Below are positions 59,344 to 64,000 of a DNA stretch of 64,000 nt, one piece after another. A program made the translations under genes and the position numbers. Positions within the stretch are counted from its first letter, which is position 1. Each line of letters opens with the position of its first letter. The notes under the pieces are model-generated. The model was not told the origin of the DNA. It did no database searches and saw only the letters and a program-made list of their open reading frames with translations. Source of the stretch: Ideonella oryzae (GTDB taxonomy: Bacteria; Pseudomonadota; Gammaproteobacteria; Burkholderiales; Burkholderiaceae_C); the NCBI RefSeq assembly GCF_024055665.1, contig NZ_JAMXMC010000002.1:434001-498000 (forward strand). The letters are read 5' to 3'.

Positions 59344-60564
59344 ATGGATCAACTGAACACGGTGTTTTCTGCAGTATTAGACTTGGCAGCGAACGGCCTC
59401 ACGCACGCCACTTGGTGGCAAGTCGTGCTCTACGCTGCCGTGGTGACTCACATCACGATCGCCGGTGTCACCATTTTCCTGCACCGTTCGCAGGCGCACC
59501 GTGCGCTGGAGCTGGGTCCCATTCCCTCCCACTTCTTCCGCTTCTGGCTGTGGATGACCACCGGCATGGTGACCAAGGAATGGGTCGCCATCCACCGCAA
59601 GCACCACGCGAAGTGCGAGACCGAGGAAGACCCGCACAGCCCGATCACCCGCGGCATCGGCACCGTCATGAGTCGCGGCGCGGAGCTCTATCGTGCTGAG
59701 GCCAAGGTCACCGAGACGCTCTCCAAATATGGGCACGGCACGCCGGACGACTGGATGGAGCGCAACGTCTACACCAGGCACAGTGCCAAGGGCATCCTGC
59801 TGATGCTCCTGATCAACGTCGCGCTGTTCGGCGCCATCGGCGTCACCATCTGGGCCATCCAGATGGCCTGGATTCCGTTCTGGGCGGCTGGCGTGGTCAA
59901 TGGCCTGGGTCACTACTGGGGCTACCGCAACTTCGAGGCGGCCGATGCGTCGACCAACCTCTCGCCCTGGGGCATCATCATTGGTGGCGAAGAGTTGCAC
60001 AACAACCACCACACCTATCCGACCTCGGCCAAGTTCTCGGTCAAGCCCTTCGAGTTCGACATCGGCTGGGGCTACATCCGCGCCATGGAGATGCTGGGCT
60101 GGGCCAAGGTGCGCAAGACCGCGCCCCAGCTGCAACTGGGCCCGCTGAAGCCGGTGGCCGATGCCAAGACGCTGGAGGCGATCATCGCCAACCGCTACGA
60201 GGTGATGGCCAACTACGCCAAGGAACTGCGCCGTGCCTGTGCCGGTGAAGTGGCTCGGGTGAAGGCTCAAGGCAGCAGCAACTCGGCCTGGAGCAACCTG
60301 CGTGTGGCGCAGCGTTGGCTGCACCGCGACGTGGAGAAGATCCCGACCGACCTGCTCCCGCAGGTGGAGAGCGCCGTGGCCACGTCGCCGGTGCTGCAGA
60401 AGCTGGTCACCATGCGCGAAGAGCTGCGTCAGCTCTGGACCCGCACCAATGTGTCGGCCGAGCAGCTGGTGGCCGATCTGCAGGACTGGTGTCACCGGGC
60501 CGAGAGCAGCGGCGTCGCGGCGCTGCGCGAGTTCTCGCTGCAACTGCGTTCCGCCCGTGCCTGA
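59344..60564 (+). CDS. Acyl-CoA/acyl-lipid fatty acid desaturase
   Basis: A 406-residue membrane di-iron desaturase. The three His boxes are present: HRSQAHR at residues 47-53, HRKHH at residues 84-88 and HNNHH near residue 220. Four hydrophobic helices form the membrane part. A long C-terminal region (about residues 270-406) is helical and Glu/Arg-rich, beyond what a minimal delta-9 enzyme needs. It probably introduces a double bond into membrane acyl chains at low temperature. A terminator follows 25 bp after the stop. Confidence 0.92.
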   Translation: MDQLNTVFSAVLDLAANGLTHATWWQVVLYAAVVTHITIAGVTIFLHRSQAHRALELGPIPSHFFRFWLWMTTGMVTKEWVAIHRKHHAKCETEEDPHSPITRGIGTVMSRGAELYRAEAKVTETLSKYGHGTPDDWMERNVYTRHSAKGILLMLLINVALFGAIGVTIWAIQMAWIPFWAAGVVNGLGHYWGYRNFEAADASTNLSPWGIIIGGEELHNNHHTYPTSAKFSVKPFEFDIGWGYIRAMEMLGWAKVRKTAPQLQLGPLKPVADAKTLEAIIANRYEVMANYAKELRRACAGEVARVKAQGSSNSAWSNLRVAQRWLHRDVEKIPTDLLPQVESAVATSPVLQKLVTMREELRQLWTRTNVSAEQLVADLQDWCHRAESSGVAALREFSLQLRSARA

Positions 60565-60613: not shown

Positions 60614-60700
60614 CATGGTCGCTTGCTTCGCTTTCTTCCTGAGCGGGTGGGGAGCCCCAGCCAGCACAAAAAGGGCGGGCAATAAAAAAACCTGCGTCGA

Positions 60701-61486
60701 ATGGTGCGGTTTGCCGCCAAGTTCCCGGACGAGCGGATTGTCGTATCACTGATACGACAATTGAACTGGACGCATTTCATCGCCTTGATTCCGCTGAAAG
60801 ATCCGCTTCAGCGGGACTACTACGCGCAGATGGCCAGTGCCGAGCGCTGGAGCGTGCGGACGCTACGCGAGCGCATCGACTCGATGCTGTACGAACGTAC
60901 GGCGCTGTCTCAGAAGCCGGAGGAGACCATCGCTCAGGAGCTGGCAACCCTGCGCGATGCGCAACGGATGACTCCGGCACTGGTGATGCGCGACCCGTAC
61001 ATCCTCGACTTTCTGGGACTGCGGGATAGCTGGCAGGAGAGCGACCTAGAGGCAGCCATCATTCGCGAAATGGAAGCCTTCCTGCTAGAGCTGGGCGCGG
61101 GCTTCTGCTTCGTCGCCCGCCAGAAGCGCATCCAGATCGACAACGAGGATTTTCATCTTGATCTGCTGTTCTACAACCGGAAACTGCGCCGGCTGGTGGC
61201 GGTGGAGTTGAAGATAGGCGAGTTTAAGGCCGCGTACAAAGGACAGATGGAGCTTTACTTGCGCTGGCTGGACAAGCACGAGCGTGAACCAGAGGAAGTC
61301 TCTCCGCTGGGGATCATCCTTTGCACCGGCAAGAAGTGCGAACAGATCGAGTTGTTTGAACTGGATAAGTCAGGGATCCACGTTGCCGAATACCTGACCA
61401 GTTTGCCGCCGCGTGCAGTGCTAGGGGAACGATTGCAGCAGGCAGCACGTCGAGCGGAATCGAAGATCAAACAAGGCAAAGCATAG
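60701..61486 (+). pseudogene. DUF1016/YhcG-family nuclease, 5'-truncated
   Basis: A 261-residue C-terminal two-thirds of a YhcG-type protein (full length about 340 residues). The PD-(D/E)XK nuclease core is intact: Asp154 in HLDLLFYN, Glu169 and Lys171 in VAVELK, and Gln182 in KGQMELYLRWL. The N-terminal DUF1016_N helical domain is mostly missing. In frame upstream of the ATG, codons 60686-60700 still read KNLRR, the sequence expected immediately before MVRFA, then a TAA at 60683 breaks the frame. Hence it is a decayed gene, although translation from the internal ATG would give a nuclease fragment. Base composition is lower in GC than neighbours, suggesting transfer. Confidence 0.8.
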
Positions 61487-63233
61487 AACTCGAAAATCCG
61501 CCCAAGATTTTTTTGAGCGAGTTGAAGTCCTCATCCGACAAACTCTTTGGTGCGACTACTCTTGTCCTGGCCGCCATGTAGAGAGTGCCGTCCTGTGTCC
61601 AAATCGGAGCTTGCCCCATTAGGCAGACTCCGAGGGAAAATTCAGCAAACCGTTCAGCCAACTGTTCGATTTTTGATGCGTTCCTCACGACAAATGCCTC
61701 AAGGCTTTCGTGAATTGCCCGCTGGGCTTCTTCGACGTTAGGAAGCTCCATCTTAGGAAACCCCTCAAGGCAGCTGGACACATCCAAGAACACCAAGCCA
61801 TAGACCCGCTGGGAAATAGCCCTGGCTTGGGCGGTGATCTGCTTGCCCGCCTTCTTGAAGTTTTTCTCAAATTTTTTCTCGGAAGAAAGTCGCTTGCACT
61901 CGCCGAAGACGAGGAACTCGTTGTTTTCGGCGACAACATCCGTGATTTTATTGAAGTCGATCTTGTATCCGGACAACGACATCCTTGCTGCAATCAGCAG
62001 TTCGAACAAAAAGTCTCTTGATGACCCTGCCGAACTAGCATCAGGATGATCTTGTCCGTCCGCTACCTTGCTTAGCCTATCTACAAATCCTTGACTTGCT
62101 TCGTCTCGAAATGCTCGGTGAATCAGAACAATGTTCAAGCACTCGGTATACGAGTTGGTCAGTTTGTCAAACTTGACCCGACCGTCAGCGGAGGTGGGAT
62201 CGTCGCACGAGAAAAAATTATCTACGTCTTTCTCGTATCTTGAATACCGGGATTTCAGGGCGCTAAGACCTTTTTCCTTCAGCCATTCAAGAACGCATGG
62301 CATTTCCTTGAGGATTGATTCACCCGCAAAATCTTTCTTGTGAGTAGAGGACCTTGCATCGTCTGGGGAAGGAAAAATGCCTGGAGAACCTGGCATCAGA
62401 GCATGAAGCGTTGCAAATGCCGCGCTTGCAATTGCCTCGGCGACTTCATCGCGTCGACTTCCCATCAAGGCGCGTATTGCATTGATTCTCGCCTGAATGG
62501 AGGGATGAGTTTGGGAGGCGCCCCACTTATCGCGCGCCAGCAAGATCATTGCAAATAGAGCGAAATAGATTCCGAGTTCTCTCTTTCTGCGAACAAGGTT
62601 CGAGCTTACATTTTCCCGTTGGGCATAGGCATCAAGCTGGTCAAGCAGGAACTTCGTGGCGAAGGCGTCGCATGACATTTCCTCGTTCCTGCGCTGGGTT
62701 GGGTCTTCCTCGTAAGGATCTGCCGAATCACCCTCCTGCTGGTGCTTCAGATGCCGCACCTCATGCAAGAGCGCCCAACCAACTCCCAGCGTTGCAAGCT
62801 CCCCTGGCGCGCGAAGTTGTGGGTTGCCGTCGTAGTGGCCAGGCTCGGGAACATCTTTGGGCAGTGCTTCCAGCTCCGGGGCATCGCTTTCCAAGACACG
62901 CTCAAACGCGTCAATCAGCTCGGCTAGCCGCTTGAGGTCAAGTGGCTCAAATTCAGGCGTTTCCGCTACAACGCGATACGCTTCCCAAGCTGCAAAGCCT
63001 GCGATCCAGAATGCACGCACTACGCGATGATTAAAACGGACGAAGCGATACATCCCCGCTTCCATGACCAATCGCGCGCCGTCGTAGGTATCGGCAGTAA
63101 GTTGAAAACGGGGCTCAAGCAAGCTCCACAAGGAAGCCAACTCGCTTTCGCGTTCCGGCGCAGATCCTAGCAGGACGTTCCGAACTGCGGTTTTTACTTG
63201 TTCATCCTTGCGCGGAGGCAGGGTTGAGTTCAT
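61467..63233 (-). CDS. Putative HExxH metallopeptidase fused to a PD-(D/E)XK nuclease-like domain
   Basis: A 588-residue protein that I do not recognise as a named family. The N-terminal half resembles Lit-type (peptidase U49) or related Zn peptidases: HEVRH at 157-161 in GWALLHEVRHLKHQ, then NEEMSCDAFATKFLLD (Glu184/185, Asp189) as possible third ligand, and THPSIQARINAI near 242. The C-terminal third (about 405-490) has a nuclease-like pattern: Glu411 in a helix, Asp432, and Glu445-Cys-Lys447 in LVFGECKRL, followed by a Lys-rich helix. AGGAG precedes the ATG at 63233. The region has about 45-50 % GC by hand count of two lines, against about 68 % before it. It overlaps the DUF1016 remnant tail to tail by 20 bp. 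A phage-defence role is plausible but unproven. Confidence 0.75.
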   Translation of the reverse strand: MNSTLPPRKDEQVKTAVRNVLLGSAPERESELASLWSLLEPRFQLTADTYDGARLVMEAGMYRFVRFNHRVVRAFWIAGFAAWEAYRVVAETPEFEPLDLKRLAELIDAFERVLESDAPELEALPKDVPEPGHYDGNPQLRAPGELATLGVGWALLHEVRHLKHQQEGDSADPYEEDPTQRRNEEMSCDAFATKFLLDQLDAYAQRENVSSNLVRRKRELGIYFALFAMILLARDKWGASQTHPSIQARINAIRALMGSRRDEVAEAIASAAFATLHALMPGSPGIFPSPDDARSSTHKKDFAGESILKEMPCVLEWLKEKGLSALKSRYSRYEKDVDNFFSCDDPTSADGRVKFDKLTNSYTECLNIVLIHRAFRDEASQGFVDRLSKVADGQDHPDASSAGSSRDFLFELLIAARMSLSGYKIDFNKITDVVAENNEFLVFGECKRLSSEKKFEKNFKKAGKQITAQARAISQRVYGLVFLDVSSCLEGFPKMELPNVEEAQRAIHESLEAFVVRNASKIEQLAERFAEFSLGVCLMGQAPIWTQDGTLYMAARTRVVAPKSLSDEDFNSLKKILGGFSSSMLCLV

Positions 63234-63279
63234 CGTTTTCTCCTGTTGCCGCTCACCTTATTTGTTCTTCGAGGTGTGC

Positions 63280-64000
63280 TGACCTGCCCCCTTCAGCCGT
63301 ACCAGTGATTCGGTTGGGGTCCTGGGGTTGAAGGTTAATGGATCTGGGCAGGGATCTCGTGACGAGCGGCGTCGCCTGCCTGCTGACGCAGTTGCTCGGC
63401 ATACCTGGCTGGCGGTATGCGGCCAATGCTGCTGTGAGGCCGAACCTCGTTGTAGTCCCGACGCCATGCGCCAATCTCGGTGCGTGCCTGGCGCAGGCTC
63501 TGGAACCAGTGCTCGTTGAGGCACTCGTCGCGGAACTTGCCGTTGAAGCTCTCGATGTAGCCGTTCTGCATGGGCCTGCCTGGCTCGATCAGGATGTGCC
63601 GGATGTGGTGTTCCTGCGTCCAGGCGATGAAGGCCCGGCTGGTGAACTCCGGGCCGTTGTCGGTTCTGACGGCGGCCGGGTAGCCCCTGAAGCGCGCCGC
63701 CTGATCCAGCAGCCGGGTCACGTACAGCCCGCTGATTCCGTAGTTCACAGCGATCTCCACGCACTCGTGGCTGAAGTCATCAGCCACGGTCAGACACTTG
63801 ATGCGCCGTCCACTGGCCAGGCTGTCGCTGACGAAGTCCATGCTCCACACCTCGTTGATGCGTTGGGCGATGTTCAGGGGCGCGCGCTCCATCACCGGGC
63901 GCTTGGCCTTCTTGCGCTTGCGCACCGCCAGATTGGCCGCGCTGTAGAGCCGGTACACCCGCTTGTGATTGACGGCAGGGAAGTCGGCACGCAGCAGGTC
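63280..64000 (-). mobile_element. IS3-family insertion sequence, one end (partial)
   Basis: The element's terminal inverted repeat reads TGACCTGCCCCC at 63280-63291, typical of IS3-family ends, and the transposase gene fills the rest up to the window edge. The other end lies outside, so target-site duplication cannot be checked. It ends only 46 bp upstream of the peptidase-nuclease start codon. Confidence 0.82.
63335..64000 (-). CDS. IS3-family transposase OrfB, rve/DDE domain (5' end outside window)
   Basis: Retroviral-integrase-type transposase. The catalytic triad can be read: Asp in VWSMDFVSD, Asp in VRTDNGPEF, and Glu in GYIESFNGKFRDECL (35-residue spacing of the last two, as in IS3 OrfB). 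The C-terminus has NEVRPHSSIGRIPPARYAEQL, typical of the IS407/IS3 subgroups. The frame stays open through the last base of the window (DLLRADFPAVNHKRVYRLY), so the N-terminal half and OrfA are missing here. The gene seems intact as far as it can be seen. Confidence 0.9.
   Translation of the reverse strand, partial: DLLRADFPAVNHKRVYRLYSAANLAVRKRKKAKRPVMERAPLNIAQRINEVWSMDFVSDSLASGRRIKCLTVADDFSHECVEIAVNYGISGLYVTRLLDQAARFRGYPAAVRTDNGPEFTSRAFIAWTQEHHIRHILIEPGRPMQNGYIESFNGKFRDECLNEHWFQSLRQARTEIGAWRRDYNEVRPHSSIGRIPPARYAEQLRQQAGDAARHEIPAQIH

What the first reader, a model, noticed from the sequence alone, without database searches (positions are those of the whole stretch)
61467..63233. HExxH peptidase domain joined to a PD-(D/E)XK-like domain
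One 588-residue protein combines a Zn-peptidase signature (HEVRH 157-161, acidic follow-up residues 184-189, THPSIQARI) with a C-terminal restriction-nuclease-like signature (Asp432, Glu445-x-Lys447, Glu411). I know of no named defence system with this pair. Lit-type peptidases are known phage-exclusion proteins that cleave EF-Tu, and PD-(D/E)XK domains are common effectors, so a two-effector or protease-activated nuclease system is conceivable. The low GC content, the IS and the broken nuclease gene next door are typical of defence islands.
Basis: partly seen in the sequence, partly recalled or inferred. Interest (0 to 1): 0.75.

Follow-up and report, generated by a model that had tools for sequence, protein, structure and literature searches.

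The report
Lit-like protease fused to a nuclease-like domain
A protein built from a Lit-type (phage-exclusion) protease and a restriction-enzyme-like domain sits in a small, IS-damaged mobile island; in some relatives the two halves are neighbouring genes of a three-gene cassette that looks like an uncharacterised anti-phage defence module.

Summary
The 588-aa ORF (61467-63233, minus strand) is real. Residues 1-290 are a Lit/U49-type zinc peptidase: Pfam U49 is over its cut-off, and H157, E158, H161 align with H160, E161, H164 of E. coli K-12 Lit. Residues 305-588 are an unnamed PD-(D/E)XK-like protein; E411, D432, E445, K447, Q465 are invariant in 8 aligned homologues. The fusion is a variant: in Plasticicumulans, Luteibacter and Ramlibacter the halves are separate neighbouring genes (B, C) behind a third gene A with PIN-like motifs; the window and Pandoraea copies are fused, and in both an IS3-type element has broken gene A. 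YhcG and an integrase adjoin C in Pandoraea, Plasticicumulans and Sulfuriferula. A, B and C are under strong purifying selection. The window copy lies in a 4.2-kb insert absent from three congeners. Some Lit relatives stand near Gabija, Hachiman or a PD-T7-1 homologue, or in P2-type prophages; others have no defence neighbour. Most likely: an abortive-infection cassette with a Lit-type protease and a nuclease as coupled effectors. The coupling rests on one mobile lineage, A, B and C also occur apart, and no trigger, substrate or activity was tested. Fold support for C is moderate; gene A rests on motifs only.

The parts
61467..63233 (-). 588-aa fused protein B-C: Lit-like peptidase + PD-(D/E)XK-like domain; an AGGAG stretch stands just before the ATG at 63233
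62364..63233 (-). B, residues 1-290: Lit/U49-type zinc peptidase domain
   Evidence: Pfam PF10463 over cut-off, PADLOC Lit, PHROG 34061 E 2.8e-67; 23 of 29 ten-residue blocks of the model at pLDDT 73-94
62751..62765 (-). HExxH motif, residues 157-161
   Evidence: aligned with E. coli Lit H160/E161/H164, invariant in 7 Lit proteins
62667..62684 (-). E184, E185 ... D189: probable third zinc-ligand region
   Evidence: invariant in 7 Lit proteins and 8 rows; role as ligand is inference
62322..62363 (-). B-C junction, residues 291-304: unconserved linker; small indels here fuse or separate B and C in relatives
   Evidence: DNA alignment; pLDDT under 50 at 288-308
61470..62321 (-). C, residues 305-588: unnamed PD-(D/E)XK-like protein family
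   Evidence: stand-alone homologues; no family match above chance level in this part
61782..62021 (-). nuclease-like core, residues 405-484: helix with E411, strands with D432 and E445-C-K447-R, helix with Q465, strand
   Evidence: invariant residues; order of elements in the model; coordinates
60701..61486 (+). YhcG/DUF1016 PD-(D/E)XK protein, N-terminally truncated, overlapping the end of C tail to tail by 20 bases
   Evidence: Pfam PF06250 and PF17761, PADLOC PDC-S02; full length and followed by an open integrase-like frame in L007, L008, L010
63253..63279 (-). last codons of gene A (AHLEEQIR and stop), the only part of A found
   Evidence: same end as gene A in L008, L009, L011; no match at E 0.001 in the whole genome
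63280..64000 (-). IS3-family element; its ends are at window 63280 and the equivalent of 64536, so it runs past the window end; transposase from 63335
   Evidence: NCBIfam IS3 over cut-off; terminal repeats
60619..64000 (.). foreign insert (ends at the equivalent of about 64793, past the window) between a fatty-acid desaturase and a conserved flank
   Evidence: the stretch is missing between the two conserved flanks in three congeneric genomes, L036, L037, L038

Best explanation
The protein is the fused form of genes B and C of a mobile three-gene anti-phage cassette A-B-C. B is a Lit-type zinc peptidase: kept latent, switched on when a phage product is met, it cuts a host protein (by analogy EF-Tu) and stops growth of the infected cell. 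C is a PD-(D/E)XK nuclease that serves as a second effector in the same response. B and C are made together by tight coupling of their genes or by fusion. Gene A, lost here to an IS, is a third effector or accessory, perhaps a PIN-type RNase. Shown: homology, conserved catalytic residues, gene order, purifying selection, island setting. Inferred: anti-phage role, trigger, substrates, nuclease activity, cooperation of B with C.
For: Lit-family membership by three HMM libraries and catalytic alignment with E. coli Lit. Nuclease motif invariant in 8 aligned C homologues. Model order helix-strand-strand-helix-strand and VIA rows to N.BspD6I (Z 7.3), BsmI (7.1), R.BspD6I small subunit (7.0), a McrBC chain (6.8), XisH (6.4) and Cdn1 (6.2) at residues about 360-588. 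B and C adjacent and co-directional in all 5 loci in which I saw both (window and four named genera), fused in 2 of the 5. NG86 dN/dS 0.09-0.20 for the 10 B pairs and 0.11-0.21 for the 15 C pairs, window included. Setting of relatives: a Lit homologue with GajA (968 bits) and GajB (880 bits) within a few kb; one in a run of genes with Hachiman HamA; one directly after a PD-T7-1 homologue (275 bits); one in P2-type prophages; a C homologue near a TIR gene; gene A alone among what look like phage tail genes. A fragment of the host's EF-Tu holds the Gly-Ile cut site.
Against: A, B and C each occur without the others: A in prophages L019/L020, B relatives in P2-EC46 and Phenylobacterium, C relatives in L013-L015, L017 and Alteromonas, and one close C (L010, 81% identical) stands without A and B after ABC-3C-type genes. 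All B-C pairs belong to one recently spread element (85-94% DNA identity), so linkage could be hitch-hiking. Both fused copies have a broken gene A, so fusion may mark decaying copies. Foldseek gave no match at E 0.001 or better, VIA rows of unrelated proteins score as high, and the C half has pLDDT mostly 55-77. The Lit equivalog cut-off is not met. Several Lit relatives have no co-directional nuclease neighbour. No activity was tested.
Confidence: 0.5

Rival explanations
1. A string of independent single-gene defences: A, B and C are solo genes packed side by side in an integrase-YhcG element, and the B-C fusion is an accident of tight packing with no shared mechanism.
For: Each gene occurs alone elsewhere; C is kept while A-B is swapped for ABC-3C-type genes in L010; YhcG, a further candidate defence gene (PADLOC PDC-S02), overlaps C tail to tail.
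Against: B and C stay together and co-directional in 5 of 5 loci that hold both, and the fused frame is open in two different genomes with low dN/dS between them (0.12 for B, 0.13 for C). Some other Lit lineages also stand next to nuclease-type genes.
Confidence: 0.3
2. Protease-activated nuclease: B's task is to cut C (or its own linker) upon infection and so release the nuclease.
For: Fused and unfused forms coexist; the linker is low-confidence, perhaps flexible (pLDDT under 50 at 288-308).
Against: The junction is not conserved and shows no shared cleavage-like sequence; in three loci C is already a separate protein; known Lit cuts EF-Tu, not a partner (PMC3014915, passages seen).
Confidence: 0.1
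3. The window copy is a dying remnant with no function in this genome (compatible with either origin of the module).
For: Gene A is gone, YhcG lacks its start, no integrase adjoins YhcG, an IS3 element ends 46 bases upstream of the ATG.
Against: The 588-codon frame is open and its divergence from relatives is mostly synonymous (dN/dS 0.12-0.20 for B and 0.11-0.16 for C against each relative; the time since gene A was lost is unknown); an AGGAG stretch precedes the ATG.
Confidence: 0.25

Closest known systems
E. coli K-12 Lit (e14 prophage), peptidase family U49
   Same: HExxH and the downstream EE..D are aligned and invariant; similar length (297 aa against 290); mobile-element setting
   Different: 20% identity in the 8-row alignment, 27% over the best local stretch of 153 residues; window protein below the NCBIfam Lit equivalog cut-off; has a nuclease-like partner, fused or adjacent; EF-Tu cleavage and Gol response untested
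P2-EC46 Z-region ORF1 ('putative lysogenic conversion protein')
   Same: 37.5% identity over residues 9-286, HEVRH and EE.SCD kept
   Different: Single gene in a P2-type prophage; the next gene is on the opposite strand; no C
Lit + GIY-YIG + 172-aa gene set of Luteibacter (L009) and an Agrobacterium plasmid (L047)
   Same: Lit-family gene with a nuclease-type gene directly after it
   Different: 28% identity of the Lit parts; the nuclease is of another type (GIY-YIG)
PD-(D/E)XK superfamily (McrC, XisH, BspD6I, YhcG)
   Same: E...D...ExK...Q motif; weak-to-moderate structural matches
   Different: C and its homologues match no Pfam, NCBIfam, PADLOC or PHROG model above chance level in the scans made

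Membership tests
Peptidase family U49 (Lit) | Pfam U49 profile over its gathering score | tested here: met
   33.6 bits against 23.9
Peptidase family U49 (Lit) | HExxH zinc motif and downstream acidic residues conserved with Lit | tested here: met
   H157/E158/H161, E184/E185, D189 invariant in 7 Lit-family proteins including E. coli K-12 Lit
Lit proper (NCBIfam equivalog PRK09672) | score over the equivalog cut-off of 274 bits | tested here: not met
   85.4 bits
Lit proper (NCBIfam equivalog PRK09672) | cuts EF-Tu between Gly59 and Ile60 in the presence of Gol | not testable with these tools
   a host EF-Tu fragment does hold the RGITI site; the mechanism is from PMC3014915, passages seen
PD-(D/E)XK superfamily (domain C) | conserved acidic-acidic-x-Lys active-site set | tested here: met
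   E411, D432, E445, K447, Q465 invariant in 8 rows from 6 lineages
PD-(D/E)XK superfamily (domain C) | core fold | tested here: inconclusive
   expected order of helices and strands and VIA Z 6.2-7.3 to six PD-(D/E)XK enzymes, but acetyl-CoA carboxylase (7.5) and UDP-glucose dehydrogenase (7.0) score alike and Foldseek has no match at E 0.001 or better
PIN-domain nucleases (gene A of relatives) | HMM or fold match | tested here: inconclusive
   no PIN family in Pfam, PADLOC, NCBIfam or PHROGs; 2 of 5 members match Pfam DUF1079 (best E 1.4e-4); model unusable, pLDDT 40.8; only motif residues (D, E, D..DF, T-D/E) by eye
Known anti-phage system in PADLOC 2.0.0 | a model for a Lit plus PD-(D/E)XK partner | tested here: not met
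   only the Lit model matches the window protein; P0002 (C alone) and gene A of L009 match none

The most novel reading that the evidence does not exclude
A three-effector immunity cassette, PIN-like RNase plus Lit-type peptidase plus PD-(D/E)XK nuclease, in which attack on a host translation factor and attack on nucleic acid are physically coupled; and Lit-family peptidases are often the protease half of protease-nuclease defence pairs (neighbours seen here: PD-(D/E)XK, GIY-YIG, DUF2130, a PD-T7-1 homologue).
Probability: 0.2. Interest if true: 0.8.

Novelty: new variant of a known kind. Interest (0 to 1): 0.55.

Why it matters
Lit is a classic phage-exclusion protease known as a single gene. 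If Lit-type proteases work with nucleases, their triggers and targets must be re-read as parts of two-effector systems, and an unnamed PD-(D/E)XK family (C) and an unnamed prophage-borne family (A) become testable defence genes. The natural series fused / overlapping / separate at one junction is a ready-made experiment.

Tried and rejected
Chance motif: rejected, because family models and distant homologues keep the residues. Assembly artefact of the fusion: unlikely, because a second genome (L007) has the same fused frame with another linker sequence. Solved relatives by sequence: none useful (phmmer of the whole protein best E 1.7; profile of B best E 1; profiles of C and A no row at E 10 or better). 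Foldseek against PDB and BFVD: no match at E 0.001 or better; the best rows were N.BspD6I (E 0.15) and an unnamed viral protein S5VY85 (E 0.059, probability 0.98; not followed). The VIA rows are all under Z 8, and acetyl-CoA carboxylase and UDP-glucose dehydrogenase chains rank with the nucleases, so fold alone would not carry the claim. In the peptidase half the row for Ste24p, an M48 peptidase by recollection, has Z 5.8 over 135 residues, but a CNOT1 chain has 6.0. The model of gene A was unusable and was not searched.

Scans of viral contigs for C and with the whole window protein found no relative. The first order-wide search found 2 of 300 genomes, the window's own and G196. A U49 family search of 398 phylum genomes found 1 and missed the window's own copy, so its sensitivity is poor. 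With profile A10, 4 of 369 class genomes and 3 of 398 phylum genomes matched, own included each time; L049, L050, L051 and L053 are short partial matches and were not followed (in one search I scanned a stretch of L049 that proved to be an unrelated flank). The profile of B and C together matched 7 of 369 class genomes, own included; of the 6 others I used 4 in alignment A4 (L013, L014, L015, L017) and dropped L016 (reading frame broken) and L018 (E 4e-4, probably chance). L022 (frame-broken Lit relative) and L006 (short Lit-like fragment) are not counted among the neighbourhoods.

Papers: ten full-text searches ran; I saw their listings, and passages only of PMC9519451, PMC3014915 and PMC1189080. 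None of the listings showed this pair; the library lacks most subscription journals and preprints, so this is no proof that none is in print. That DUF2130 is a nuclease-like family, the PIN motif pattern, and which PDB entries are PD-(D/E)XK enzymes are recalled, from no call. The calling of integrases in L028 and L033 and of tail genes around gene A is by eye from translations.
Full report
What is there. The ORF at 61467-63233 on the minus strand encodes 588 residues as stated. Its N-terminal half is a Lit/U49-type peptidase: Pfam PF10463 33.6 bits with cut-off 23.9, PADLOC Lit E 6.2e-11, PHROG 34061 E 2.8e-67, NCBIfam Lit 85.4 bits but below the equivalog cut-off of 274. Against E. coli K-12 Lit, window H157, E158, H161, E184, E185 and D189 fall on H160, E161, H164, E180, E181 and D185 and are invariant in the 7 Lit-family proteins aligned. 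It is thus a member of U49, not shown to be Lit proper.

The C-terminal half matches no curated family: the full protein has no Pfam, PADLOC or NCBIfam row in that half and one chance-level PHROG row, and the half alone has none in Pfam. It does have homologues: close ones in the mobile element described below, and distant stand-alone proteins of 288-311 residues on Alteromonas plasmids and in G490, G430, G381 and G663. The model (mean pLDDT 70.3; in B 23 of 29 ten-residue blocks at 73-94, in C mostly 55-77) shows helix 405-420, strands 434-436 and 439-443, helix 452-470, strand 476-484, the usual order of that fold. VIA rows for this part include N.BspD6I (Z 7.3, 122 residues, 4.7 A), BsmI (7.1), the small subunit of R.BspD6I (7.0, 117 of 186), a McrBC chain (6.8), XisH (6.4, 106 of 128) and Cdn1 (6.2), PD-(D/E)XK enzymes by my recollection, but all are below Z 8, and acetyl-CoA carboxylase (7.5) and UDP-glucose dehydrogenase (7.0) score alike. 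Foldseek alone gave nothing at E 0.001 or better. The motif conservation is therefore the stronger argument.

The parent module. A scan of genome contigs with the C-half alignment gave 5 loci. In Plasticicumulans (L008), Luteibacter (L009) and Ramlibacter (L011) the two halves are two adjacent, co-directional genes, B (290 codons, extended by a frame change in L008) and C; in Pandoraea (L007) they are fused as in the window; Sulfuriferula (L010, the same contig as G196/L002) has C without B. The DNA alignment shows that small indels in an unconserved linker decide whether B and C are fused (window, L007), overlap by 74 bases (L008) or are 16 bases apart (L009, L011). Upstream of B in L008, L009 and L011, at 16-39 bases, stands gene A (376-397 aa). 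Its conserved D (YLDTNAW), E, D..DF and T-D/E suggest a PIN-type nuclease (by eye; the motif is recalled), but no PIN model supports this; 2 of 5 members match Pfam DUF1079 at best E 1.4e-4, and the fold prediction failed. Downstream and tail to tail with C is YhcG, followed by an integrase gene or open integrase-like frame in L010, L007 and L008; in L009 and L011 only the last 31 and 23 residues of YhcG remain. So the ancestral element was probably A-B-C / YhcG-integrase.

The window copy. Of gene A only the last codons (AHLEEQIR, stop) survive, cut off by an IS3-family element whose ends lie at window 63280 and the equivalent of 64536, with no matching target repeat at its flanks; no match to A at E 0.001 exists in the genome. 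YhcG lacks its first 85-90 residues and no integrase adjoins it; a 55-residue stretch 62% like the L010 integrase lies at and beyond the far end of the IS. In three congeneric genomes the two flanks are joined without the stretch equivalent to window 60619-64793, so it is a 4.2-kb foreign insert; the fused gene has 52.1% GC against 69.4% for window 1-59000. In L007 gene A is also broken, by DNA that is 98.8% identical to an annotated IS3 family transposase. Thus both fused copies (2 of 2) have lost A, while the three unfused copies (3 of 3) keep it. With five loci this may be chance, but it warns that fusion might accompany decay. Against decay of B and C: dN/dS (NG86, my script) is 0.12-0.20 for window B and 0.11-0.16 for window C against each relative, like the other pairs; gene A pairs give 0.11-0.23.

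Neighbourhoods. B relatives: P2-EC46 Z region, the same gene in a viral contig and in 5 of 5426 E. coli genomes, the one I opened lying between tail-fibre and sheath genes; Phenylobacterium plasmid with an AbiEii-type gene nearby; G857, where the Lit gene overlaps a DUF2130 gene by 4 bases, with GajA and GajB of Gabija and an integrase-like gene within a few kb; viral contig L024, where a PD-T7-1 homologue (275 bits) directly precedes it; Luteibacter L009 and an Agrobacterium plasmid, where a second type of Lit gene is followed by a GIY-YIG gene and a 172-aa gene, on the plasmid in one run with a restriction endonuclease and Hachiman HamA. E. coli K-12 lit, P2-EC46, Phenylobacterium and the Klebsiella plasmid copy have no co-directional nuclease neighbour in the tables I saw (the plasmid tables are incomplete). 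Gene A relatives: alone among apparent tail genes in two viral contigs at 82-83% identity and 26% identical on a Bradyrhizobium plasmid and in a third viral contig. C relatives: near a TIR gene and an integrase-like gene in G490; after ABC-3C-type genes (PADLOC PDC-M68B 492 bits) and an Mrr-like gene (below Pfam cut-off) in L010. For the other C relatives (L029, L030, L032) I recognised no named defence gene by eye. P2-type prophages carry two hot spots for defence genes (PMC9519451, passages seen).

Mechanism. Lit of e14 is a latent zinc protease that cuts EF-Tu between Gly59 and Ile60 once the Gol part of T4 gp23 binds EF-Tu (PMC3014915, passages seen). An EF-Tu fragment of the window's genome has the same RGITI site. 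By analogy B is a latent infection-triggered protease. C, with a complete nuclease motif, is most simply a second effector. Fusion in two genomes and adjacency in all five loci that hold both genes favour cooperation; the solo occurrences of A, B and C and the A-B-free C of L010 favour independence. I put about 0.5 on a coupled two-effector defence module, 0.3 on an array of solo defence genes, 0.1 on protease activation of C; that the window copy itself is dead (0.25) is a separate question.

Novelty. Single-gene Lit is known and PD-(D/E)XK effectors are common; the pair, the C family and the A family are unnamed in the libraries searched, and the listings of ten paper searches showed no account of it. 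I rate it a new variant of a known kind, interest 0.55.

Noticed in passing
L009:10504-12480 (minus) and L047:5845-7812: A second Lit subfamily is followed directly by a GIY-YIG nuclease gene and a 172-aa gene of unknown function; the set is conserved between a Luteibacter chromosome and an Agrobacterium plasmid (59-77% identity by piece), on the plasmid in one run with Hachiman HamA; there the Lit and GIY-YIG genes are each annotated in two pieces.
   Followed up: partly
L033:7754-9993 (minus): Lit-family gene overlapping a DUF2130 gene by 4 bases, with strong GajA and GajB matches of Gabija and an integrase-like gene close by.
   Followed up: partly
L010:679-6885: ABC-3C-type genes (PDC-M68A/B), a 420-aa gene and an Mrr-like gene take the place of A and B in front of C, suggesting cargo exchange in the YhcG-integrase element.
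   Followed up: partly
L019:415-1536, L020:5992-7101: Gene A of the cassette occurs alone among apparent tail genes in two proviral contigs at 82-83% identity: an unnamed prophage-borne family.
   Followed up: partly
L024:3537-5936: Two genes in front of a Lit-family gene match PADLOC PD-T7-1 (275 and 30 bits).
   Followed up: no
L012:8470-8619 (equal to window 64470-64619, past the window end): A 55-residue stretch 62% like the L010 integrase N-terminus lies on the far side of the IS, partly overlapping its end; possibly the remnant of a second integrase at this site.
   Followed up: no
window 59344-60564: The fatty-acid desaturase beside the insert gives a Pfam hit of its C-terminal third to DDE_Tnp_ISL3 (E 9.1e-6, over cut-off); probably a spurious match.
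   Followed up: no
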